Assembly: GCA_902779125.1 (NCBI GenBank) | Contig: CACZAC010000001.1 | Span: forward strand, 62,001-126,000 | DNA length: 64,000 nt | Direction: 5' to 3' | Source of the DNA: an uncultured Bacteroidales bacterium | Lineage (GTDB): Bacteria; Bacteroidota; Bacteroidia; Bacteroidales; Muribaculaceae | Part shown: positions 264 to 40,299 of the stretch, one piece after another | Layout of the letters: every line of letters begins with the position of its first letter | Position numbering within the stretch: position 1 is the first letter of the stretch | Notes under the pieces: model-generated | The model's database searches: none | Seen by the model: the letters and a program-made list of their open reading frames with translations, nothing else | What the model was told of the DNA's origin: nothing | Translations under genes and position numbers: made by a program

Positions 264-295
264 ATAACCTCTTATTGATTCTCAAAAGCGCACAC

Positions 296-316
296 TTCTA
301 ACTCCTAACTCCTAAC
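296..316. repeat. 7-base tandem repeat, AACT class
   Basis: Three phased heptamers read TTCTAAC, TCCTAAC, TCCTAAC on the plus strand. The repeat overlaps the stop codon of the fucosidase gene (312-314, minus strand) and lies in the gap before the DUF1963 gene. It belongs to the same class as the repeats at 6304, 6957, 12201 and 13652. Confidence 0.75.
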
Positions 317-1766
317 TAGCAAAATAGCCCTCGATGTTGTTGATGCAGGGGCAGGCACGGCTGTCGAGGATGCGGATACGCCACTCTTTGGCCGTTTTCT
401 CGTGGAAACGCACGATACGCTTATAACCGATGGTTGTCGTTTCTTCATCGACAAGAACAGGTACCCATTTACCACAGCAAGTCTTATATTCGATGACAAA
501 CGACTTAACGCGCTGGCCCAGGGGAATATACTCTTGTAGCATAATCCGATTGAGGGTGACGTCCTTTTTGGTCTTGATTACAATGTCGGCAGTAAGGACA
601 CCGTCCTTGGGTGCCCAGTAAGTTTCCCAATTGCTATCACCAATCTTGCCGGCATTAAAAGATTTATTGCGCGTATCACTGGCTGTGAATTTGGCGCCCG
701 CCAACAGGTTAGTGCCTAATTCACGGGTAATCCGTTCATGCCATTGAACGGCAGTCGCCGAGTCGATAGGGTGGATAAGACCCTCGCGGTCAACGGGGAA
801 GTTGAGTAAGAATGTGCTATTGTGGCCCACGCTACGATAGTACAGGTCCATCAGTTGGTCAACACTTTTCACCTTATCGTCTTCATTCTTGTGGTAGAAC
901 CATCCTGGGCGAATTGAAGTGTCGCATTCGCTGGCACACCACGCGTCACCATCGGCATGACCAGATTGCAGTTCCTCGTATTGCGGATAGCCGGGATACA
1001 CCTCATTGATGCGCAAAAAAGCCCAATTCGTGGGGTTGGCAAACCCTTTTTCGTTGCCCACCCAACGGCATCCGGGACCTCCATCCGAGAAGATGACGGC
1101 ATCAGGCTGCAGGCGGTTGACAATGCCCCAAGCCTTGGGGTAGTTGTAATAGGTACTGCGGTCAATCTCGCGTTTCTCACTGGCTCCGCCATACCATCCG
1201 TCACCACCGTTTGCGCCGTCAAACCACACTTCAAAGATATCGCCATACTGTGTCATCAGTTCCTCCAGCTGATTATAGTAATAGGTCACATACTCTGCAG
1301 TGCCGTAGCTGGCCTGGTGTCTGTCCCATGGCGATAGATACACACCGAAGCGAATTCCGTACTTCTTGCAGGCATCGGACAATTCACGCACTACATCACG
1401 CTTAAAGGGAGAGTTGGCCACACTATAGTCGGTATATCGTGAGGGCCACAGGCAGAAACCGTCGTGGTGCTTGCAGGTGAGAATCACTCCTTTCATTCCC
1501 GCCTTGGAAAGGGTCTGCACCCACTGTTCACAATCGAGTCGGGTAGGGTTGAATGCTTCGGCAGGTGTGTCACCGTATCCCCATTCCTTGTCAGTAAAAG
1601 TATTAGGTCCGAAGTGGATAAACGCATACGTCTCCAACTGTTGCCATGCCACCTGCTGCGATGTCGGAACAGGATAACAAGGTTCTGGAGCCAAACTGTT
1701 ATCGGCCTTAACGATGCCCGTATTGAGCAGCAAGGCCATTCCCATTGTGATTATTAATCGTTTCAT
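312..1766 (-). CDS. secreted alpha-L-fucosidase, GH29
   Basis: The 484-residue protein begins with a signal peptide (about residues 1-21). It has GH29 landmarks: HFGPNTF at 51-57, TCKHHDGFCLWPS at 98-110, SPWD at 145-148, and EVWFDG at 179-184, whose Asp183 is the expected nucleophile. GH29 enzymes release terminal alpha-L-fucose from host or plant glycans. From about residue 355 a discoidin-like (F5/8 type C) carbohydrate-binding region follows, a usual GH29 arrangement in Bacteroidales. No SusC/SusD pair is nearby, so it is not in a visible utilization locus. Export to the periplasm or surface is inferred from the signal peptide. A TAAATTTG -7 box lies 32 bases upstream of the start. Confidence 0.93.
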   Translation of the reverse strand: MKRLIITMGMALLLNTGIVKADNSLAPEPCYPVPTSQQVAWQQLETYAFIHFGPNTFTDKEWGYGDTPAEAFNPTRLDCEQWVQTLSKAGMKGVILTCKHHDGFCLWPSRYTDYSVANSPFKRDVVRELSDACKKYGIRFGVYLSPWDRHQASYGTAEYVTYYYNQLEELMTQYGDIFEVWFDGANGGDGWYGGASEKREIDRSTYYNYPKAWGIVNRLQPDAVIFSDGGPGCRWVGNEKGFANPTNWAFLRINEVYPGYPQYEELQSGHADGDAWCASECDTSIRPGWFYHKNEDDKVKSVDQLMDLYYRSVGHNSTFLLNFPVDREGLIHPIDSATAVQWHERITRELGTNLLAGAKFTASDTRNKSFNAGKIGDSNWETYWAPKDGVLTADIVIKTKKDVTLNRIMLQEYIPLGQRVKSFVIEYKTCCGKWVPVLVDEETTTIGYKRIVRFHEKTAKEWRIRILDSRACPCINNIEGYFAS

Positions 1767-3436: not shown

Positions 3437-4357
3437 ATGAAACAAAGAATCTTTTTGTCATTTTTATTGTGTTTGACAGCAGTGTGCTTGTTATCGTTCA
3501 CTGCCGATGTCGAGTACCAACGTGGTGATGTAAATCATGATGGTAACGTGAGTGTAGCAGATGTATCTAGTTTAATAGATTATCTGGTGAGTGGAACATG
3601 GGACGATGAACCTGTTAATCCCAGCGAACCGCAAAAAGAGATATTTACTGTCAACGGAATATCATTCACGATGGTGACAGTTGAGGGTGGCACCTTTACC
3701 ATGGGTGCTACTGCTGAGCAAGGCGACGATGCCGACGTATTGGAATATCCTGCTCATGAGGTAACAGTGTCAAGTTTCAGCATTGGGCAAACCGAAGTGA
3801 CGCAAGCCCTGTGGCAGGCAGTGATGGGAAACAACCCGAGCGACTTTGCGGATAATCCTCAACGCCCCGTTGAATGCGTATCATGGTATGACTGCCAGAC
3901 TTTCATCTCCAATCTGAATCAACTGACCGGCAAGTCTTTCCGCCTGCCCACCGAGGCAGAGTGGGAGTTTGCCGCCCGTGGTGGAAACATGAGCCGAGGC
4001 TATAAATATGCCGGCAGCAACAACATTGATGACGTCGCATGGTATTGGGACAACATTCCCTCGTATCAAAGCGGCACAGCAGGCTATGGAACACAGACAG
4101 TTGCAACTAAGTTACCTAACGAGTTGGGTCTCTATGACATGTCAGGTAATGTTTTTGAATGGTGTCAGGACAGGTATGGCAATTATGGTGGCGAGGAACC
4201 GACTGACACAATAGTAGAACCTCTTCCTAATGGTTACCTACAGGTGGAACGTGGTGGTAGCTGGCGTGCCCTTGAAAGAGGCTGTCGTGTGTTTTATCGG
4301 AGTTACGATTTTCAGAACGAAACAGTTAATGTTGTTGGGTTGCGTCTAGCCCTGTAA
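3437..4357 (+). CDS. secreted protein with half-dockerin and FGE-sulfatase (SUMF1) fold
   Basis: The 306-residue protein has a signal peptide (about 1-23), a single dockerin-like calcium repeat (GDVNHDGNVSVADVSSLIDYL, about 30-50), then an FGE/SUMF1 domain from about 70 to the end. FGE landmarks are GGTFTMG at 84-90, RLPTEAEWEFAARGG at 169-183, MSGNVFEW at 235-242, RGGSW at 272-276 and a terminal GLRLAL. In true formylglycine-generating enzymes two cysteines follow GGS five residues apart; here the first is Ala278 and only Cys283 remains. Oxidase activity is therefore doubtful and a binding or structural role is more likely. No sulfatase gene is adjacent. It precedes a strong bidirectional terminator. 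Confidence 0.85.
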   Translation: MKQRIFLSFLLCLTAVCLLSFTADVEYQRGDVNHDGNVSVADVSSLIDYLVSGTWDDEPVNPSEPQKEIFTVNGISFTMVTVEGGTFTMGATAEQGDDADVLEYPAHEVTVSSFSIGQTEVTQALWQAVMGNNPSDFADNPQRPVECVSWYDCQTFISNLNQLTGKSFRLPTEAEWEFAARGGNMSRGYKYAGSNNIDDVAWYWDNIPSYQSGTAGYGTQTVATKLPNELGLYDMSGNVFEWCQDRYGNYGGEEPTDTIVEPLPNGYLQVERGGSWRALERGCRVFYRSYDFQNETVNVVGLRLAL

Positions 4358-6303: not shown

Positions 6304-6338
6304 AAACTAGAAACTAGGGACTAGAAACTAGAAACTAA
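6304..6338. repeat. 7-base tandem repeat abutting the rsmG start
   Basis: Five phased heptamers read AAACTAG, AAACTAG, GGACTAG, AAACTAG, AAACTAA, and the rsmG ATG begins at the very next base (6339). The repeat therefore occupies the whole ribosome-binding region, and no Shine-Dalgarno motif is present. Confidence 0.9.
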
Positions 6339-6959
6339 ATGGAACATATCCTGAAATATTTTCCAGAACTGACCGAGACCCAACGCAACCAGATGGCTGC
6401 TCTGGAAACCCTGTATCCCGAGTGGAACGCCAAAATCAACGTCATCTCCCGCAAGGACATCGATAACCTTGAGGTTAACCACATCCTGCACTCATTGGGA
6501 CTGGTTAAGTTCGTCAAGTTCATGCCGGATACCCGTATTTTGGATTTCGGGACGGGTGGGGGACTGCCCGGCATTCCACTGGCTATTTATTACCCCGAAG
6601 TGACCTTCCATCTTGTGGACCGCATCGGCAAGAAGCTGAAAGTGGCTCAGGACATTGCCGAGCGCATCGGGTTGACCAATGTGACTTTTCAGCATGGTGA
6701 CATCAAGGAGGTAAAAGGCAAGTTTGACTTCGTGGTGAGCCGCGCCGTGATGGACTTGGGCGACATGGTGCCGCTAGTGAAACGCTTTATCGACAGTGAG
6801 GATCGTAATGCTATTCCCAACGGCTTGCTCTGCCTCAAAGGGGGCGACCTGACTGGCGAGGTGCAGAAATACAAAAAACAAGTCCTCATCGACGAGCTAT
6901 CCAGCTATTTCAAGGAAGATTTCTTCAAAACCAAGAAAATCCTCTATCTCCCTCTTTAA
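6339..6959 (+). CDS. rsmG: 16S rRNA (guanine(527)-N(7))-methyltransferase
   Basis: The 206-residue protein is the usual length for RsmG (GidB). It carries the SAM-binding motif ILDFGTGGGLPGIPLAI at about 68-84, an HLVDRIGKK acidic-loop motif, and the family's N-terminal NVISRKDI segment. It methylates N7 of G527 in 16S rRNA; loss is known to give low-level streptomycin resistance in other bacteria. Heptamer tandem repeats lie on both sides: one ends at its ATG and one begins inside its stop codon and runs to the next gene, so it is probably co-transcribed with the MBL-fold gene. Confidence 0.96.
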   Translation: MEHILKYFPELTETQRNQMAALETLYPEWNAKINVISRKDIDNLEVNHILHSLGLVKFVKFMPDTRILDFGTGGGLPGIPLAIYYPEVTFHLVDRIGKKLKVAQDIAERIGLTNVTFQHGDIKEVKGKFDFVVSRAVMDLGDMVPLVKRFIDSEDRNAIPNGLLCLKGGDLTGEVQKYKKQVLIDELSSYFKEDFFKTKKILYLPL

Positions 6960-6984
6960 ACTCTAAACTGTAAACTTTAAACTG
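6957..6984. repeat. 7-base tandem repeat bridging rsmG stop and next ATG
   Basis: Four phased heptamers read TAAACTC, TAAACTG, TAAACTT, TAAACTG. The first unit begins with the TAA stop of rsmG (6957-6959), and only one base separates the last unit from the ATG at 6986. The entire intergenic gap is repeat. Confidence 0.9.
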
Positions 6985-6985
6985 C

Positions 6986-7624
6986 ATGAATGCGACAATG
7001 ATGACCGTCAATCCGTTTGGCGAAAATATGTATATCCTATGGGACGAGGCTTCGCACGAAGCAGTGGTTGTTGACCCTGGCATGATGCGTGACAGTGAAC
7101 GGGATATGGTGACCAAGTTCATTGAAGAGCACAACTTGAGTGTGAAGTACATCCTGTTAACCCATCTGCATGTCGATCACATCACCAGTGCTCGATGGCT
7201 TGCCGACAAAACTGGTGCCGACGTGTGCGGCAGCGTCTTAGACAATCCATTGGGAAAGGAACTGCCCGAGCAGGTGGAACATTTCCGCATTAATGTCGAG
7301 GTGGAGCCCTTGACTGTTGACCGGAACTTGGCCGACGGTGATACATTACAGTTGGGCGAGGAGACCATTCAGGTGCTCCACGTTCCGGGCCATAGCCCTG
7401 GAGGACTGGCATTTTATTTGCCCGAGAGTGCGCTGCTCATCAGTGGTGACACCATCTTCAACGGCAGTGTGGGGCGCACCGACCTGTGGGGCGGCGACAT
7501 GGCGCAGCTGCTCGACAGCATCCGTGAGAAAATCTTCCCGCTCCCCGACGAGACCGTCATCGCCTCGGGCCACGGCCCCACAACCACCGTCGCCGACGAG
7601 AAACGCTTCAATCCCTTCATGTAA
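6986..7624 (+). CDS. MBL-fold metallo-hydrolase (glyoxalase II-like)
   Basis: The 212-residue cytoplasmic protein has the metallo-beta-lactamase metal motif HLHVDH at 60-65. Later ligands are HVPGHSPGG, the Asp in SGDTIFNGSVGRTDL, and the His in SGHGPTT. The short length and the SVGRTDL segment resemble hydroxyacylglutathione hydrolase-like (GloB/YcbL type) thioesterases, but it lacks the long C-terminal glutathione-binding domain of true glyoxalase II. The substrate is therefore unknown. It follows rsmG across a gap made only of tandem repeat and ends before a hairpin terminator. Confidence 0.9.
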   Translation: MNATMMTVNPFGENMYILWDEASHEAVVVDPGMMRDSERDMVTKFIEEHNLSVKYILLTHLHVDHITSARWLADKTGADVCGSVLDNPLGKELPEQVEHFRINVEVEPLTVDRNLADGDTLQLGEETIQVLHVPGHSPGGLAFYLPESALLISGDTIFNGSVGRTDLWGGDMAQLLDSIREKIFPLPDETVIASGHGPTTTVADEKRFNPFM

Positions 7625-12161: not shown

Positions 12162-12200
12162 AATCAATAACGCTCTAAAAAAAATTATTGGTCATCAAAA

Positions 12201-12235
12201 ACCATTAACTATTAACTATTAACCATTAACTATGA
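12201..12235. repeat. 7-base tandem repeat at rlmH stop
   Basis: Four full phased heptamers read ACCATTA, ACTATTA, ACTATTA, ACCATTA, with a fifth degraded unit (ACTATGA). The repeat contains the rlmH stop codon (12226-12228, minus strand) and runs into the gap before the next minus-strand gene. Confidence 0.85.
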
Positions 12236-12798: not shown

Positions 12799-13647
12799 AT
12801 GAAAACAAGAGAAGAACTGATTGACGAGTTAATCGACCTGGCGTTTGCCGAAGACATCGGTGACGGTGACGCTACAACCCTGTGCTGCATTCCTGCCGAC
12901 GAGATGGGTCGTCAACGCCTGATTGTGAAAGAAGAAGGCATCCTAGCCGGTGTAGAGATTGCTCGCCGTGTGTTTGAGAAATTTGACCCTGAATTGCAGA
13001 TGGAGGTCATGATTGAGGATGGTGCCCATGTCAAGCCCGGTGACATCGCCTTTGTGGTGACCGGCAAGGTTCGCTCCCTGTTACAGACCGAGCGTCTGAT
13101 GCTCAACATCATGCAGCGCATGAGTGGCGTGGCTACCACCACAGCCCGTTATGCCAAGTGCCTGGAGGGACTCAAAACCCGCGTCTTGGACACCCGCAAG
13201 ACAACGCCTGGCATGCGCATGCTCGAGAAAGAAGCAGTCAAGATTGGTGGCGGCTGCAACCACCGTATCGGTCTGTTCGACATGATTCTGCTCAAGGACA
13301 ACCATGTGGACTTTGCCGGCGGTATTGTTCCTGCCATCGAAAATGCCCACAAGTGGTGCAAGGAGAACGGCAAGAACCTTAAGATTGAGATTGAGGTGCG
13401 CAATTTCGATGAGTTGCAGCAGGTGCTCGACCATGGTGGCGTTGACCGCGTGATGCTCGACAATTTCTCGGTCGAGAACACCCGCAAGGCTGTTGAAATC
13501 ATCAATGGCAGGGTAGAGACCGAGTCCAGCGGAGGCATCACCATCGACACACTCAGAGCATACGGAGAGTGTGGCGTGGACTACATCTCGGTGGGCGCCT
13601 TGACGCATTCCATCAAGTCGCTCGACATGAGCTTTAAAGCCTGCTGA
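12799..13647 (+). CDS. nadC: nicotinate-nucleotide pyrophosphorylase (carboxylating)
   Basis: The 282-residue protein is full length for NadC (quinolinate phosphoribosyltransferase), which turns quinolinate and PRPP into nicotinate mononucleotide in de novo NAD synthesis. Diagnostic segments are LNIMQRMSGVAT, DTRKTTPG, the GGGCNHRIGLFD motif, LKDNHV, EVRNFDEL, and SSGGITIDTLRAYGECGVDYISVGALTHS. nadA and nadB are not in the window. The following gap is almost wholly heptamer repeat leading to the DAHP synthase start. Confidence 0.97.
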   Translation: MKTREELIDELIDLAFAEDIGDGDATTLCCIPADEMGRQRLIVKEEGILAGVEIARRVFEKFDPELQMEVMIEDGAHVKPGDIAFVVTGKVRSLLQTERLMLNIMQRMSGVATTTARYAKCLEGLKTRVLDTRKTTPGMRMLEKEAVKIGGGCNHRIGLFDMILLKDNHVDFAGGIVPAIENAHKWCKENGKNLKIEIEVRNFDELQQVLDHGGVDRVMLDNFSVENTRKAVEIINGRVETESSGGITIDTLRAYGECGVDYISVGALTHSIKSLDMSFKAC

Positions 13648-13651
13648 TGTA

Positions 13652-13714
13652 AGTCAGGAGTTAGGAGTTAGAAGTCAGGAGTTAAAGACTAGAAACTAGG
13701 GACTAGAAACTCAT
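13652..13714. repeat. nine-unit 7-base tandem repeat with inverted halves
   Basis: Nine perfectly phased heptamers fill the gap between nadC and the next ATG at 13716. The first five are of the AGTTAGG / AGTCAGG type and the last four of the GACTAGA / AACTAGG type. The AACT core thus lies on the minus strand in the first half and on the plus strand in the second. Confidence 0.9.
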
Positions 13715-13715
13715 A

Positions 13716-14810
13716 ATGGAATTACAGCAGATCCAGCCACTCTCGTTTCCGGGCATTGATGCAGGTTCACCCTTCATCATCGCTGGGCCGTGCAGTGCCG
13801 AGACCGAACAACAGACGCTTGACGCCGCCCGTGCTTTGAGCGCCATCGGTGTGAAGGTGTTCAGGGCTGGCATCTGGAAACCGCGCACCATGCCTGGCGG
13901 TTTTGAGGGCGTGGGAGATTGTGGCTTAAGCTGGTTGCAAAAGGTTAAACGTGAGACGGGCATGGCAGTGGCTACCGAGGTGGCTACAGTCGAGCATGTG
14001 CAAGCCGCACTCAATGCCGGTATCGATATCCTATGGGTGGGAGCACGCACTACCGCCAACCCGTTTGCCGTACAGGATATTGCAGATGCATTAAAAGGCC
14101 ATGACGAGGTGGCTGTACTGGTCAAAAATCCGGTTAATCCCGACTTGGATTTGTGGCTCGGCGCCCTCCAGCGCATGATTGGTGCTGGTATTACTCGATT
14201 GGGAGCGGTGCATCGTGGATTCAGTTCTGCTGGCGCCCACATGTACCGCAACGACCCGCAGTGGCACATCCCGTTCGAACTGCGCCGTCATGCACCCTCA
14301 ATGACTATCCTGTGTGACCCGTCCCATATCGGTGGTAAACGGGAATATGTAAAGACACTGTCCCAGATTGCTCTTGACACTGGTTTTGACGGCTTGATGA
14401 TTGAGAGTCATTGTAATCCTGACCAAGCCTTGAGCGATAGCGCCCAGCAGATAACGCCAAGTGATTTGGGCGCTATGCTGAGCCGTCTGGTCATCCGTTC
14501 AGGCAAACCGATTGAGGATGAATTGACGTTATTACGGCAACAGATTGACGACTGTGACCATGAACTGCTGGCAGTACTTGCTCGTCGCATGAGCGTGGCA
14601 CGCGAAATCGGTCTTTTCAAGAAGGCTCACAACCTGCGTGTAGTACAGCCTGCACGATATCAAGACGTCATGAAAGCCCGACTTGCCGAGGGCCGCATGC
14701 TGGGATTGCCCGAGGACTTCACCCAGCAGATTGTACAAGCAATCCATGAGGAAAGCGTACGCCAGCAACTCGACCTTTTATCAAACAACAACACGAGTGA
14801 CAAGTCATGA
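13716..14810 (+). CDS. bifunctional DAHP synthase / chorismate mutase
   Basis: The 364-residue protein fuses two steps of aromatic amino-acid synthesis. Residues 1 to about 265 are a class I-beta (KDO8P synthase-like) DAHP synthase, with IIAGPCSAET, RAGIWKPRT, KNPVNPDLDLWLGALQR and the metal-binding CDPSHIGGKR and ESHCNPD. From about 268 an AroQ-type chorismate mutase follows (LRQQIDDCDHELLAVLARRM, REIGLFKKAHN). Such C-terminal mutase fusions are common in Bacteroidetes and give feedback control by prephenate in characterised cases. No other shikimate genes are nearby. Confidence 0.95.
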   Translation: MELQQIQPLSFPGIDAGSPFIIAGPCSAETEQQTLDAARALSAIGVKVFRAGIWKPRTMPGGFEGVGDCGLSWLQKVKRETGMAVATEVATVEHVQAALNAGIDILWVGARTTANPFAVQDIADALKGHDEVAVLVKNPVNPDLDLWLGALQRMIGAGITRLGAVHRGFSSAGAHMYRNDPQWHIPFELRRHAPSMTILCDPSHIGGKREYVKTLSQIALDTGFDGLMIESHCNPDQALSDSAQQITPSDLGAMLSRLVIRSGKPIEDELTLLRQQIDDCDHELLAVLARRMSVAREIGLFKKAHNLRVVQPARYQDVMKARLAEGRMLGLPEDFTQQIVQAIHEESVRQQLDLLSNNNTSDKS

Positions 14811-16440: not shown

Positions 16441-19400
16441 TTATTTGATGACCTTGCTAGTAGTGCGGGTACCGTCGGTGTAGGTTGTAACCACGAGGGT
16501 CACGCCATTCTCAGGACTGTCAATCTGCTGACCTGCTATGTTGAAGTAATTAACACGGGCTATCGTTTTGCCAGCGGACAGTTCGTTGACTACACTAGCA
16601 TTGTTCACACCGATGGCGAAGCCGTCAAGTTTCACGCTTTGGCATCCTGTGGTCACCAATTCGATGCCGTCAACACTGATGTCACCATTCACTAATCTCA
16701 TCGAGGTCACGTCAAACGTCAGCAGAACACCCTCATGGCCACCGATTGCGGTCAACACGGGCGAATAGCAAAGGACCCGCATCATGCCGCTCTCCAGCAT
16801 GTTGATGTCAAAGGCATGGCTGTCGGCACGGTCTGTTAGACTGAAGTTGTTGGCCGTCAGGCCTTCGGGCAGGTTCAGGTCTAGCTGGAAAGCAGTGTAT
16901 GCCATCTCGTTGTCAAGAGTGATGCTCACCTTGCGGGTTTCGCCAGGCATTAGGCTGATGCTCTCTCCGCTCATGCGGTCACAGTTATTCCACAGGGCAG
17001 GTGCACGCATTGGTGCATACGCAGTGGGATTGAGTACCATCCAGGCGATGCGAGCCACATCAGCCACTGTGATATAGCTGTCCTCGTTTACGTCGGCAGC
17101 CTCAAAGTTGAATGGCTGGGGATTAAGTTCCAGAACAGACTGTGCCGTGACGACAACATCGCCCACAGTCACAGTACCGCTGTCGTTGGCGTCACCTGGC
17201 AGATAGGCCTTCACATTGATTGTGGCAGCCACATCGGGAGCAGCAATGTCAACAAAGTCCGTATTGGTGAGCAGCGTGTTCTTCAGCGCAATCGTGTAGT
17301 CGCCCTTGGCATCATCAGCCACCTTGACGGTTATGAAGAACAGCTCGTCACCGCTCTCACCAGTGAAGGGCTTGTAGTTCGACGAGTAGCACAGCACACG
17401 GATTGCTCCATTGGATACGTCACTGCTCATGATGCTATGCGTGCGTGTCATGCGTTCCGAAGGATCGATGATGTACTCGCCGTCCTCCTGAAGCGCTTCC
17501 AAGCCTTCGGGCAAGAAAATGTCTGTCTGGAAAGCCGTGATGTTGGCAGCATTGGTCATTCTCACGGGAATCACAATCGTGTCGCCATGGAATGCTTCAA
17601 CATCTGTCAGCGACAAGTAATCACTATACTGTGACATGTCATTAAAGACTTCAACTATGCACGAAGCACCCAAGTTACTGCCATCAGTGGTCATGACAGT
17701 AATCGTCGCCGTTCCAGGAGCAATAGTAGTTACCAGACCATCGTTTACAGTTGCAACAGCGCTGTTGCTCGTAGACCATGCCACAGACTTGTTGGTAGTA
17801 TTTTCAGGAAGAACAATAGCCATTAATTGCATTGTTTCACCCGCTGTTATCGAAGCATTAGTTTTATTAAGACCAATTGATGTCGCATTGATCGGATCCA
17901 TTTCTACTATAAAACCAAAATACTGACTCCATCTTGTGTCGGCTTGATAGTCTGCGGACATACCGTTAGGAACATACAACGTAGTGCTGCTATATTTTCC
18001 ATATTCGCCAAAGACATGATCCCCCATTGATAAGTTAGGCAAGTCAGTAATATAACTATACACTTCTTTTAGCCCACTGCATCCATAGAACGCACCCTCG
18101 CCGATGTAAGTGACGTAATTGGGAATGGTAACACTCGTTAGACCACTGCAGTTACAGAATGCATTGTCTCCAATTGAAGTGACGGAATTGGGAATCTCGA
18201 TGTTTGTCAAACCGCCGCAGCTATGGAACGCATCGTTACCTATAGTAGTGACGGAATTGGGAATCTCGATGTTTGTCAAACCGTTGCAGCTATGGAACGC
18301 ACCGCTACCTATAGTAGTGACGGAATTGGGAATCTCGATGTTTGTCAAACCGTTGCAGCCAGAGAACGCATCGAAGCCTATGGCAGTGACGGAATTGGGA
18401 ATAAAAGAGTTTTTACAACCCATAATCAAACTATTTGTCGCTGTTTCAATAATCGCATTGCAGTTTTCTCGTGAATCGTAATAGGGATTTTCACTATCAA
18501 CAGTAATTGTCTCCAGTTCATTGCAGCCAATGAACGCATCACGTAATGAAGATAATGAAGACCCAATAGCAATGCTCATCAGTCCACTGCATTCATAGAA
18601 CGCACCTACGTTTATGGAAGTGACGGAATTGGGAATCTCAATGTTTGTCAAACCGCTGCATTCATAGAACGCACCATCGCCAATGTGCGTGACGGAATTG
18701 GGAATCTCAATGTTTGTCAAACTGCGGCAGCCACAGAACGCATAACTGCCTATGGTTGTGACGGAATTGGGAATAAAAGATTTTTTGCAACCCACAATCA
18801 AACTATTTGTCGCTGTTTCAATAATCGCATTGCAGTTTTCTCGTGAATCGTAAATGGGATTATCACTATCTATAGTAATAGCAGTCAGTTTGTTGCAGCC
18901 ATAGAACATAAAGCTGCCTATAGTAGTGACGGAGTTGGGAATGTTGACACTCGTTAGCCCGCCGCAGCTATGGAACGCACCGCTACCTATAGTAGTGACG
19001 GTATTGGGAATCTCAATGTTTGTCAAACCGTTGCAGCCAATGAATGCATAGCCTGCAATGCCTTTTGTCCCGTCTCGCAAAGTAATATTTGTTCCTGTGG
19101 GCATAGTACCTTTGTATTTATAAGCCACAAGTCCAGCATAGATTAATCCGTCTTGCTGATTGTTATACCATGATGTGCCCTCGAACACATTGTCTGCGAT
19201 GTACGTAACGGTATTGGGAATGATGACACTCGTTAGACCACTGCAGTTATAGAACGCATAGCTGCCTATAGTAGTGACGGTATTGGGAATGATGACACTC
19301 GTTAGACCACTGCAGTTATAGAACGCATAGCCTTCGATAGACGTGACGATATAGTTTTTCCCATTGTAATAGACCGATGAGGGAATATCTACTGAGCCAG

Positions 19401-19551
19401 AGTAAGAATCATAAGATGTTCCCGTGGTTACCGATACTTCATTGCCGTTGATCTGATAATAGATGCCGTCGACCTCAAAATCATAGGAGAATGCGGTGGC
19501 AGGCAACAGAAGTACCAGAAGGAATAGTGTGAGTTTTAGTTGTTGTTTCAT
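16441..19551 (-). CDS. secreted BspA-type LRR protein with Ig-like, cohesin-like and dockerin modules
   Basis: The 1036-residue surface protein has these regions in order: signal peptide (1-22); BspA-type leucine-rich repeats (about 65-500) built on a 23-residue unit with GLTNIEIPNSVT and IGSGAF cores; a BIG_2 Ig-like domain (about 556-635); a first cohesin-like domain (about 645-780); a dockerin (about 785-842); a second cohesin-like domain (about 862-985); and a C-terminal tail (FNIAGQQIDSPENGVTLVV, ending KVIK) resembling a type IX secretion sorting signal. BspA-like proteins bind host matrix proteins or other bacteria in oral Bacteroidales. Ligand, and whether the dockerin binds its own cohesin-like partners, are unknown. 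Confidence 0.88.
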   Translation of the reverse strand: MKQQLKLTLFLLVLLLPATAFSYDFEVDGIYYQINGNEVSVTTGTSYDSYSGSVDIPSSVYYNGKNYIVTSIEGYAFYNCSGLTSVIIPNTVTTIGSYAFYNCSGLTSVIIPNTVTYIADNVFEGTSWYNNQQDGLIYAGLVAYKYKGTMPTGTNITLRDGTKGIAGYAFIGCNGLTNIEIPNTVTTIGSGAFHSCGGLTSVNIPNSVTTIGSFMFYGCNKLTAITIDSDNPIYDSRENCNAIIETATNSLIVGCKKSFIPNSVTTIGSYAFCGCRSLTNIEIPNSVTHIGDGAFYECSGLTNIEIPNSVTSINVGAFYECSGLMSIAIGSSLSSLRDAFIGCNELETITVDSENPYYDSRENCNAIIETATNSLIMGCKNSFIPNSVTAIGFDAFSGCNGLTNIEIPNSVTTIGSGAFHSCNGLTNIEIPNSVTTIGNDAFHSCGGLTNIEIPNSVTSIGDNAFCNCSGLTSVTIPNYVTYIGEGAFYGCSGLKEVYSYITDLPNLSMGDHVFGEYGKYSSTTLYVPNGMSADYQADTRWSQYFGFIVEMDPINATSIGLNKTNASITAGETMQLMAIVLPENTTNKSVAWSTSNSAVATVNDGLVTTIAPGTATITVMTTDGSNLGASCIVEVFNDMSQYSDYLSLTDVEAFHGDTIVIPVRMTNAANITAFQTDIFLPEGLEALQEDGEYIIDPSERMTRTHSIMSSDVSNGAIRVLCYSSNYKPFTGESGDELFFITVKVADDAKGDYTIALKNTLLTNTDFVDIAAPDVAATINVKAYLPGDANDSGTVTVGDVVVTAQSVLELNPQPFNFEAADVNEDSYITVADVARIAWMVLNPTAYAPMRAPALWNNCDRMSGESISLMPGETRKVSITLDNEMAYTAFQLDLNLPEGLTANNFSLTDRADSHAFDINMLESGMMRVLCYSPVLTAIGGHEGVLLTFDVTSMRLVNGDISVDGIELVTTGCQSVKLDGFAIGVNNASVVNELSAGKTIARVNYFNIAGQQIDSPENGVTLVVTTYTDGTRTTSKVIK
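18100..19350 (-). repeat. near-identical 69-bp repeats encoding LRR units
   Basis: Within the LRR gene the 23-codon unit recurs with very few base changes, most strikingly at about 18180-18390, 18610-18770 and 19205-19330. A longer block with no LRR core (FIPN.. / NCNAIIETATNSLI, about 110 bp) is also duplicated at about 18400-18510 and 18770-18880. Such conserved DNA repeats can recombine and change repeat number. Confidence 0.85.
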
Positions 19552-40218: not shown

Positions 40219-40299
40219 TCAAACAACTTGAACAACAAGGAACAACCAAAACAACAATTAATGTTGTTGATGTTGTTTTAAGTTGTTCAAGTTGTTTGA
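40219..40299. repeat. perfect 18-bp inverted repeat (long hairpin)
   Basis: TCAAACAACTTGAACAAC (40219-40236) is exactly inverted at 40282-40299, and the 45-base interior contains further AACAAC / GTTGTT pairs. It lies between the convergent SDR and SGNH genes at the left edge of the AT-rich insert. It may act as a bidirectional terminator or be an element end. Confidence 0.85.

What the first reader, a model, noticed from the sequence alone, without database searches (positions are those of the whole stretch)
6304..6984. Phased 7-base tandem repeats that fill intergenic gaps and touch start and stop codons
Five gaps (296-316, 6304-6338, 6957-6984, 12201-12235, 13652-13714) consist of 3 to 9 exactly phased heptamers. 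The unit differs between loci (AAACTAG, TAAACTG, TAACTCC, ACTATTA, AGTTAGG) but all share an AACT core on one strand with a period of 7. Three overlap the stop codon of the upstream gene, and three end zero to two bases before the next ATG, where a ribosome-binding site would be expected. This is seen directly. A role in translation tuning, slippage-driven change of spacing, or an RNA structure is inference. I do not know of a formal description of this class.
Basis: partly seen in the sequence, partly recalled or inferred. Interest (0 to 1): 0.7.

Follow-up and report, generated by a model that had tools for sequence, protein, structure and literature searches.

The report
Two-sided heptamer linkers between operon genes
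Many gaps between neighbouring same-strand genes of this rumen-type gut bacterium are filled by short 7-base repeats whose wording and direction depend on whether they sit behind one gene's end or in front of the next gene's start, and related species carry such spacers at some junctions where others have none.

Summary
AACT(N3)AACT(N3)AACT matches 258 times in the 3.35-Mb genome; the pattern read backwards matches once. In 854 kb sampled, 0 of 65 AACT chains lie inside a called gene; 56 lie between co-directional genes. Chains reading AACT in sense: 27 of 33 in the 3' half of the gap, 25 of 33 ending within 20 nt of the ATG. Chains reading AGTT in sense: 23 of 23 in the 5' half, behind or across the stop codon. 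In relatives some of the same junctions are stop/start overlaps without array, others carry arrays of other wording. Best reading: recurrently gained, slippage-edited intercistronic linkers, filtered so that the 3' end is an A-rich, AUG-poor, weakly paired leader, as suits SD-less Bacteroidota. An array-specific hairpin, a fixed phase to the ATG, and dependence on Y1 transposases gained no support. A one-word precedent is in print (MacGregor 2015). Function and the direction of change are inferred, not shown.

The parts
294..317 (-). Stop-side array: in the sense of the minus-strand gene AGTTAGG-type, 3 units, and it contains that gene's stop codon
   Evidence: TRF; sequence; ORF 312-1766 minus ends inside it
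6304..6338 (+). Start-side array, AACTAGA-type, about 5 units, next to the ATG of rsmG
   Evidence: nearest relative L087 has the same unit order with AACC in place of AACT in 3 units
6957..6984 (+). TAAACTN array, 4 units; its first TAA is the rsmG stop codon and it ends 1 nt before the next ATG
   Evidence: 14 of 28 genus loci have no insert here
12199..12233 (-). Stop-side array: in rlmH sense AGTTAAT-type, overlaps the rlmH stop codon
   Evidence: array also in the nearest relative, gap 64 vs 79 nt
13651..13684 (+). Stop-side array behind nadC, AGTTAGG-type in sense
   Evidence: 15 of 23 genus loci have nadC and the next gene overlapping by 1 nt instead
13685..13714 (+). Start-side array, ACTAGAA-type, before the ATG at 13716 (TRF range 13686-13711; last unit degenerate)
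6339..6959 (+). rsmG (GidB, 16S rRNA methyltransferase G), with arrays on both sides
   Evidence: Pfam PF02527, E 1.2e-30
6986..7624 (+). metallo-beta-lactamase-superfamily hydrolase gene downstream of rsmG
   Evidence: Pfam PF00753
12226..12699 (-). rlmH (SPOUT methyltransferase)
   Evidence: Pfam PF02590, E 4.9e-55
12799..13647 (+). nadC (quinolinate phosphoribosyltransferase)
   Evidence: Pfam PF01729 and PF02749
13716..14810 (+). DAHP synthase fused to chorismate mutase (called aroG in this report)
   Evidence: Pfam PF00793 and PF01817

Best explanation
The arrays are building blocks of intercistronic linkers. A short piece of repeat DNA, often two arms around a GGCATCCGC-like centre, comes to lie in the junction between two co-directional genes, in several cases one whose stop and start codons overlap in relatives. 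It then grows and shrinks largely by 7-nt units, and its words are homogenised in place. Selection keeps inserts whose 5' end leaves the upstream gene properly terminated and whose 3' end works as a Bacteroidota ribosome landing site: A-rich, AUG-poor, little paired. That filter makes the two ends use different words in opposite orientation, while the particular words drift or are replaced from species to species.

Shown: the two-sided rule, array-bearing and array-free states of the same junctions among relatives, length and word changes, the leader composition. Inferred: that arrays are gained rather than lost, that the insert unlinks translation of the two genes, that selection on the leader causes the orientation bias, and how the DNA arrives.
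For: Two-sided rule in 56 chains between co-directional genes: sense-AACT chains 27 in the 3' half and 6 in the 5' half, sense-AGTT chains 0 and 23, Fisher p = 1.6e-10. 25 of 33 end within 20 nt of the ATG; 19 of 23 start within 20 nt of the stop codon and 9 of 23 overlap it. Words follow side: AACTGAN units 61 start-side against 4 stop-side; AACTCCT, AACTTCT and AACTATT together 4 against 42 (tallied; units of one array are not independent).

Word-independent form: A/T skew of lag-7 arrays, 5' half against 3' half of the gap: 0.00 (32) vs 0.43 (26), p = 1.6e-6 in this genome; 0.07 (25) vs 0.40 (25), p = 0.004 in six other genomes; -0.10 (6) vs 0.47 (12), p = 0.005 in two orthologous gaps of other species; 162 gaps without arrays 0.03 vs 0.12.

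Genus-wide, over 101 genomes: an ATG 1-14 nt beyond the AACT end of a triple 2844 times, beyond the AGTT end 1571 times; of 69 genomes with at least 10 matches 61 go one way, 6 the other, 2 tie.

Junctions: nadC to aroG is a 1-nt overlap in 15 of 23 loci and array-bearing in 4 of the 23, plus L189; rsmG to the next gene has no insert in 14 of 28; the L066 gap is -1 or -4 nt in L234, L240, L241 and L242, while 15 of the 17 loci at 91% identity or more have 46-159 nt, 7 of these 15 with a lag-7 array. On an rsmG tree at least 6 (upstream) and 4 (downstream) changes of state are needed for 9 carriers each.

Leaders: A 0.50 vs 0.40, T 0.19 vs 0.295, ATG in 1 of 32 vs 46 of 295; mean pairing 0.36 vs 0.47 in 150 sampled others, p = 3e-5. 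Upstream adenines and low structure tune initiation in Flavobacterium johnsoniae, and AUG is under-represented near Bacteroidetes starts (PMC6847099, abstract and passages).
Against: Closure of all three frames by stop codons is not strand-specific on the stop side (sense 19 of 23, antisense 17 of 23; start side 27 vs 17 of 33), so 'carries stops' is weak as a selected property. Six of 33 sense-AACT chains lie in the 5' half and 8 of 65 chains are in divergent or convergent gaps. The L048 gap shows no overlapped state: 17 loci with the next gene found have 21-140 nt. In the G154 sample AGTT pairs are split, 2 of 4 in the 5' half (AACT pairs 13 of 16 in the 3' half). Six genomes show the opposite ATG bias. 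9 of 146 lag-7 runs lie inside called genes (7 in G087, 1 in G069, 1 in this genome). In L094 the rsmG frame reads through its array to a later TAG (sequence). The compact state is taken as ancestral because it is common, not by a formal reconstruction. No expression data and no strain-level comparison were available. Gene starts come from my own codon-model caller on 20-kb stretches, not a standard annotation.
Confidence: 0.5

Rival explanations
1. Neutral simple-sequence slippage: heptamers expand wherever DNA is not coding; position and orientation reflect only where expansion is tolerated and the ordinary base composition near starts and stops.
For: Heptamers are reported over-represented in many bacterial genomes (PMC4692102, passages). 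Array-gap lengths between this genome and its nearest relative differ by 8, 8, 15, 21, 0, 0 and 11 nt and, in two more gaps, by 21 and 7 nt; non-array gaps give 4 of 54 nonzero differences divisible by 7. Words differ within one clade at one gap.
Against: Same-order copies of whole multi-unit blocks occur at several loci (AACTAGAAACTAGGGACTAGAAACT 6 times, AACTCTAAACCCTAAACTCTAAACT 7 times in 854 kb), which local slippage alone would not be expected to make. The skew of start-side arrays (0.43) exceeds that of ordinary leaders (0.12). Arrays stand in junctions that have no spacer in relatives.
Confidence: 0.25
2. RNA hairpin element: the mirrored arms AGTT..AACT pair in the mRNA and form an intercistronic stem that tunes mRNA stability or coupling.
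For: Arms are mirror-worded; 15 gaps with both arms fold below their shuffles (mean z -2.7, t-test p = 0.002), three of them strongly (z -5.7, -7.4, -8.9 at L041 15715, L044 7580, L052 18972).
Against: The excess is not specific: both-arm gaps mean z -2.4 with 47% below -2, one-sided gaps -1.1 (27), 50 sampled gaps without arrays -1.85 with 46% below -2. Own arms pair no better than swapped arms (permutation p = 0.17), whereas halves of 60 sampled gaps without arrays do (0 of 5000 permutations).
Confidence: 0.12
3. Protein-binding repeats: a repeat-binding RNA or DNA protein reads the AACT core every 7 nt, as MacGregor proposed for TAACTGA.
For: A shared AACT consensus in 61 of 77 lag-7 arrays of this genome; the C of the core is the least variable column (0.037; other columns 0.061-0.171).
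Against: The core as a whole is not clearly more constant than the rest of the unit; congeners use different words in like places; the distance to the ATG is not fixed in phase.
Confidence: 0.13

Closest known systems
TAACTGA direct repeats of Beggiatoaceae, Cyanobacteria and some Bacteroidetes (MacGregor 2015, PMC4679880)
   Same: Heptamer direct repeats, mostly intergenic, mostly forward just upstream of start codons, some overlapping the end of the upstream gene, few with a Shine-Dalgarno; [quoted passage not shown]
   Different: Here many words share AACT, stop-side and start-side vocabularies differ, junctions are overlapped in some relatives, and congeners use other words; that paper found related heptamers rarely or never tandem in its main genome.
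Heptameric G-rich repeats GGGAATC (Xanthomonas) and GGGGA(C/T)T (Nostoc) (PMC4692102, passages)
   Same: Period 7, enriched between genes, about 180 loci in each of two Xanthomonas genomes, length variation between close species.
   Different: Those are G-rich and quadruplex-forming; these are A-rich or T-rich, with a side rule relative to genes.
REP/BIME-type intergenic repeats with Y1 (REP-associated) transposases (recalled, no paper read)
   Same: Dispersed, short, intergenic, in operon gaps; Y1_Tnp proteins exist in the genus.
   Different: No conserved single palindrome seen; arrays occur in genomes with no Y1_Tnp match.
Contingency-locus SSRs (phase variation; recalled)
   Same: Length change in unit steps near starts.
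   Different: Many loci at housekeeping genes; within-strain variation could not be tested.

Membership tests
TAACTGA repeats (MacGregor 2015) | Repeat unit TAACTGA | tested here: not met
   In this genome's chains CTA, GAA, GAC, ATT, AGA and CCT follow AACT most often; one AACTGAT unit in 65 chains. Some congeners do use AACTGAT (G006, G010)
TAACTGA repeats (MacGregor 2015) | Forward orientation within several nt upstream of a start codon | tested here: met
   25 of 33 sense-AACT chains end within 20 nt of the ATG
TAACTGA repeats (MacGregor 2015) | Related heptamers rarely or never tandem in the same genome | tested here: not met
   26 different N3 variants in the units of 65 chains, near-core units included
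Intergenic heptamer tandem repeats (general class) | Period 7 over-represented over neighbouring periods, outside genes | tested here: met
   77 lag-7 runs vs 29, 7 and 50 at lags 6, 8 and 9 in 854 kb; 72 vs 0.575 expected in intergenic DNA
REP/BIME elements | Conserved palindrome forming a hairpin | tested here: not met
   Folding of array gaps not clearly stronger than in gaps without arrays
REP/BIME elements | Associated Y1_Tnp (RAYT-type) gene | tested here: inconclusive
   Present in 92 of 101 genus genomes, but no match in G064 (99% complete, 111 AACT matches), G089 (83%, 157) and G013 (91%, 53)
Phase-variable SSR | Unit number differs within a population | not testable with these tools
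   One genome per species held; differences seen only between species

The most novel reading that the evidence does not exclude
A mobile, orientation-independent intercistronic linker. Because its two arms are mirror-worded and face outward (AGTT..centre..AACT, or TTTAGG..centre..CCTAAA in congeners), insertion in either orientation places a stop-tolerant T-rich arm behind the upstream gene and an A-rich, AUG-poor leader before the downstream gene. It can therefore enter overlapped stop/start junctions and turn coupled gene pairs into independently loaded ones across a whole genome, while each lineage rewrites its words.
Probability: 0.3. Interest if true: 0.8.

Novelty: new variant of a known kind. 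Interest (0 to 1): 0.55.

Why it matters
If right, it shows a repeat class that rewires operon junctions without breaking genes and that respects the SD-less translation rules of Bacteroidota. Overlapped and linker-bearing versions of the same gene pair in sister species form a natural experiment on translational coupling. It also makes testable why period 7 recurs in bacterial repeats, and gives gene-start predictors and MAG annotators a feature to use.

Tried and rejected
Fixed phase of arrays to the ATG: not found. Hairpin as common function: tested by folding against shuffles and by swapping arms, not supported as specific to arrays. Stop codons in every unit as the selected property: enriched over column-shuffled units (start side 20 of 31 vs mean 11; stop side 34 of 48 vs 23) but antisense is also high on the stop side (28 of 48), so demoted. 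AACT as a protected core: only its C is clearly less variable. Y1 transposase as required mover: not supported. Rfam: no match in the window at gathering thresholds. Wider phylum: 244 of 392 genomes have the AACT pattern, most rows under 40 matches by eye, and the reversed pattern is also common there. Two rich genomes outside the family (G674, G453) show, by eye in the listed places, mainly long runs; their loci overlap and were not analysed, so the side rule is not claimed there. G259 gave 4 lag-7 runs in 175 kb. G283 has no AACT pairs in 70 sampled tandem gaps and 11 AGTT pairs, all in the 5' half. Of the L048 set 13 of 30 loci, and of the L066 set 4 of 30, had no next orthologue, and one L066 locus ran off its end; 7 of 30 nadC loci had no aroG found.

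Labels set by eye: on the rsmG tree array states were assigned. L088 upstream and L092, L094 and L102 downstream were called by eye because the lag-7 scan did not list them; a weak run in L105 was not counted. 14 of 27 inner branches of that tree are poorly supported, and no shuffled-label control was read for it. L189 was read as array-bearing though one search did not find its aroG; L184 and L188 were read by eye. L178 (G082) carries exactly the G283 gap, so the two are treated as one lineage.

Full report
WHAT WAS CHECKED. The window is part of a 3.35-Mb draft genome in 97 contigs. Its nearest named relatives by RsmG are MAGs, many from rumen or other ruminant samples by their titles, filed as Muribaculaceae, Prevotellaceae or Bacteroidales bacterium; the closest is 93% identical (RUG14590, L087). 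The genes around the arrays are ordinary housekeeping genes and a fucosidase-like gene: rsmG, a metallo-hydrolase, rlmH, nadC and a DAHP synthase/chorismate mutase.

MORE THAN CHANCE. AACT(N3)AACT(N3)AACT: 130 forward and 128 reverse in the genome, 1 and 0 for the pattern read backwards. Overlapping matches of one array are counted separately. In 854 kb (window plus 40 stretches) lag-7 runs number 77, against 29, 7 and 50 at lags 6, 8 and 9 (6 and 9 are multiples of the codon length). In the intergenic part, 77 pattern matches against 0 in 40 simulations.

THE TWO-SIDED RULE. With my own codon-model gene calls (642 genes), 65 AACT chains were found and none lies inside a gene. Of these 56 are between co-directional genes, 6 in divergent gaps, 2 in convergent gaps, 1 at the edge of the sampled DNA. 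Chains reading AACT in the direction of the genes: 27 in the 3' half of the gap, 6 in the 5' half. Chains reading AGTT in that direction: 23 in the 5' half, none in the 3' half (Fisher p = 1.6e-10). Start-side words are mainly AACTGAA, AACTGAC and AACTAGA; stop-side words are mainly, in sense, AGTTAGG and AGTTAAT. 15 gaps of 45-220 nt hold both by a simple pair criterion, for example stop-AGTTAAT repeats-GGCATCCGC-AACTGAC repeats-ATG at L048 17105. 47 of 297 co-directional gaps of 30-400 nt carry arrays.

OTHER SPECIES, OTHER WORDS. The AACT pattern occurs in 93 of 101 genomes of the genus, from 0 to 634 matches, and in 87 of 198 genomes of the family, 22 of 30 genera. Congeners poor in AACT have period-7 arrays with other words in gene gaps: AATCTAT in G069; CGACTAA, TTCATAA, GTAGCAC and others in G087 and G021. 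A sample of a different genus (G154, 104 kb) shows AACTGAA and AACTAGA before starts and TTAATGG or AAGTTTAAGG behind stops; there AACT pairs are 13 of 16 in the 3' half, AGTT pairs 2 of 4 in the 5' half. The word-free statistic, A/T skew by half of the gap, holds in this genome, in six others together and in two orthologous gaps. Over the genus an ATG follows the AACT end within 14 nt 2844 times and the AGTT end 1571 times; 61 of 69 informative genomes agree, 6 go the other way, 2 tie. The AGTT count includes ATGs made inside units such as AGTTATG.

THE SAME JUNCTIONS IN RELATIVES. Between nadC and aroG, 15 of 23 genus loci have the 1-nt overlap TGATG; this genome has 68 nt, its nearest relative 89, two others 91 and 99 with AGTTAGG-type arms behind the stop, and four have spacers of 23-128 nt without heptamer arrays; L189, where aroG was not found by motif, has a 74-nt insert with AGTTTAG and GACAACT parts. 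Behind rsmG, 14 of 28 loci have no insert, 5 have other spacers and 9 carry heptamers, 6 of them in one clade whose words differ (TAAACTC, TAAACTA, TAACCAT with TAAACTT, TAACCTC), which I read as rewording in place. In L094 the rsmG frame runs on through its array to a later TAG. In the L066 gap, four loci have -1 or -4 nt; 15 of the 17 loci at 91% identity or more have 46-159 nt, 7 of them with lag-7 arrays of various words, including mirror pairs TTTTAGG / CCTAAAG and AGTTGTT / AACTAAG. The L048 gap gives no overlapped state: 21-140 nt in 17 loci, 7 with lag-7 arrays. Against the nearest relative (108 orthologues, median identity 93%), 86 gap pairs were compared: 79 have no array in either, 7 have one in at least one, 5 in both. 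That arrays were gained, rather than lost elsewhere, is inferred from how common and close-set the empty state is.

WHY THE ENDS DIFFER. Leaders made of arrays are more A-rich, poorer in T, with fewer ATGs, and less paired than other leaders of the genome. In Flavobacterium johnsoniae adenines upstream of the start and low structure tune initiation, SD sequences are lacking, and AUG is under-represented near Bacteroidetes starts (PMC6847099, abstract and passages). This fits a filter on the start side. On the stop side the evidence is thinner: arrays often contain the stop codon, but their frames are closed on both strands.

WHAT DID NOT HOLD. No fixed phase to the ATG. Both-arm gaps fold below their shuffles, but so do gaps without arrays, and arms show no preference for their own partner. 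No strict dependence on Y1_Tnp genes. The AACT core itself is not strongly protected.

THE JOINT. GCATCCGC occurs 31 times in 101 kb of this genome's intergenic DNA against 1.36 expected; 15 of 31 lie within 40 nt of a lag-7 array where 4.9% would be background. It also separates other dispersed modules, stands in both orientations in co-directional gaps, and is not enriched in the samples of G087, G069 or G154. It suggests that arrays travel as parts of a larger modular element; how is unknown.

PRIOR ART. MacGregor 2015 describes TAACTGA direct repeats upstream of starts in Beggiatoaceae, and in 15 cyanobacteria and 5 Bacteroidetes, notes stops in all frames, indels mostly in 7-nt steps between two Cyanothece strains, and one set behind a stop in reverse (abstract, passages, sections 9, 12, 23). 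G-rich heptamers are described for Xanthomonas and Nostoc (passages), heptamer-derived satellites in PMC6749651 (passages). Among the results listed by my searches I saw no paper on two-sided arrays or on such repeats in this genus; the lists were capped and the library lacks most subscription journals.

VERDICT. A real, widespread, oriented class; a new variant of a known kind; mechanism plausible but untested.

Noticed in passing
L031 11042-11127, 12515-12756, 17348-17642 (own genome): Intergenic mosaic of several dispersed modules (CACGCTAAGGCGCCAAGCCGCTAAG, GTAGGGCCTCGCCTTGGCGTGGCCG, GCTCGCTGCGCTCGCAGTTTAG) separated by GCATCCGC joints.
   Followed up: partly
window 40222-40297: 9-nt repeats AACAACAAG then GTTGTTCAA, an inverted pair with a different period; similar AACAAC stretches beside GCATCCGC at L032 1403-1470.
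   Followed up: no
window 18178-19352: 69-bp tandem repeats inside a 1036-aa minus-strand ORF (16441-19551), a repetitive coding region.
   Followed up: no
G087 samples, e.g. L166 5123-5195, L074 19168-19199: Heptamer runs with the word CGGTCAA lie inside called genes (7 inside runs in G087, against 1 of 76 placed runs in the window's genome).
   Followed up: no
L094 around 3616-3650: The rsmG reading frame continues through the heptamer array to a TAG about eight codons on, where relatives stop at its first unit.
   Followed up: no
101 genomes of the genus: Y1_Tnp (PF01797) matches in 92 of 101 genomes, up to 12 per genome.
   Followed up: partly
G017 C10 and C30: Arrays with AGTTATG units, which put an ATG in every such unit; six other genomes show the reverse ATG bias.
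   Followed up: no
G674, G453: Outside the family, long homogeneous AACT heptamer runs (AACTGCT, AACTTCC, AACTTCT), resembling ordinary satellites by eye in the listed places.
   Followed up: no
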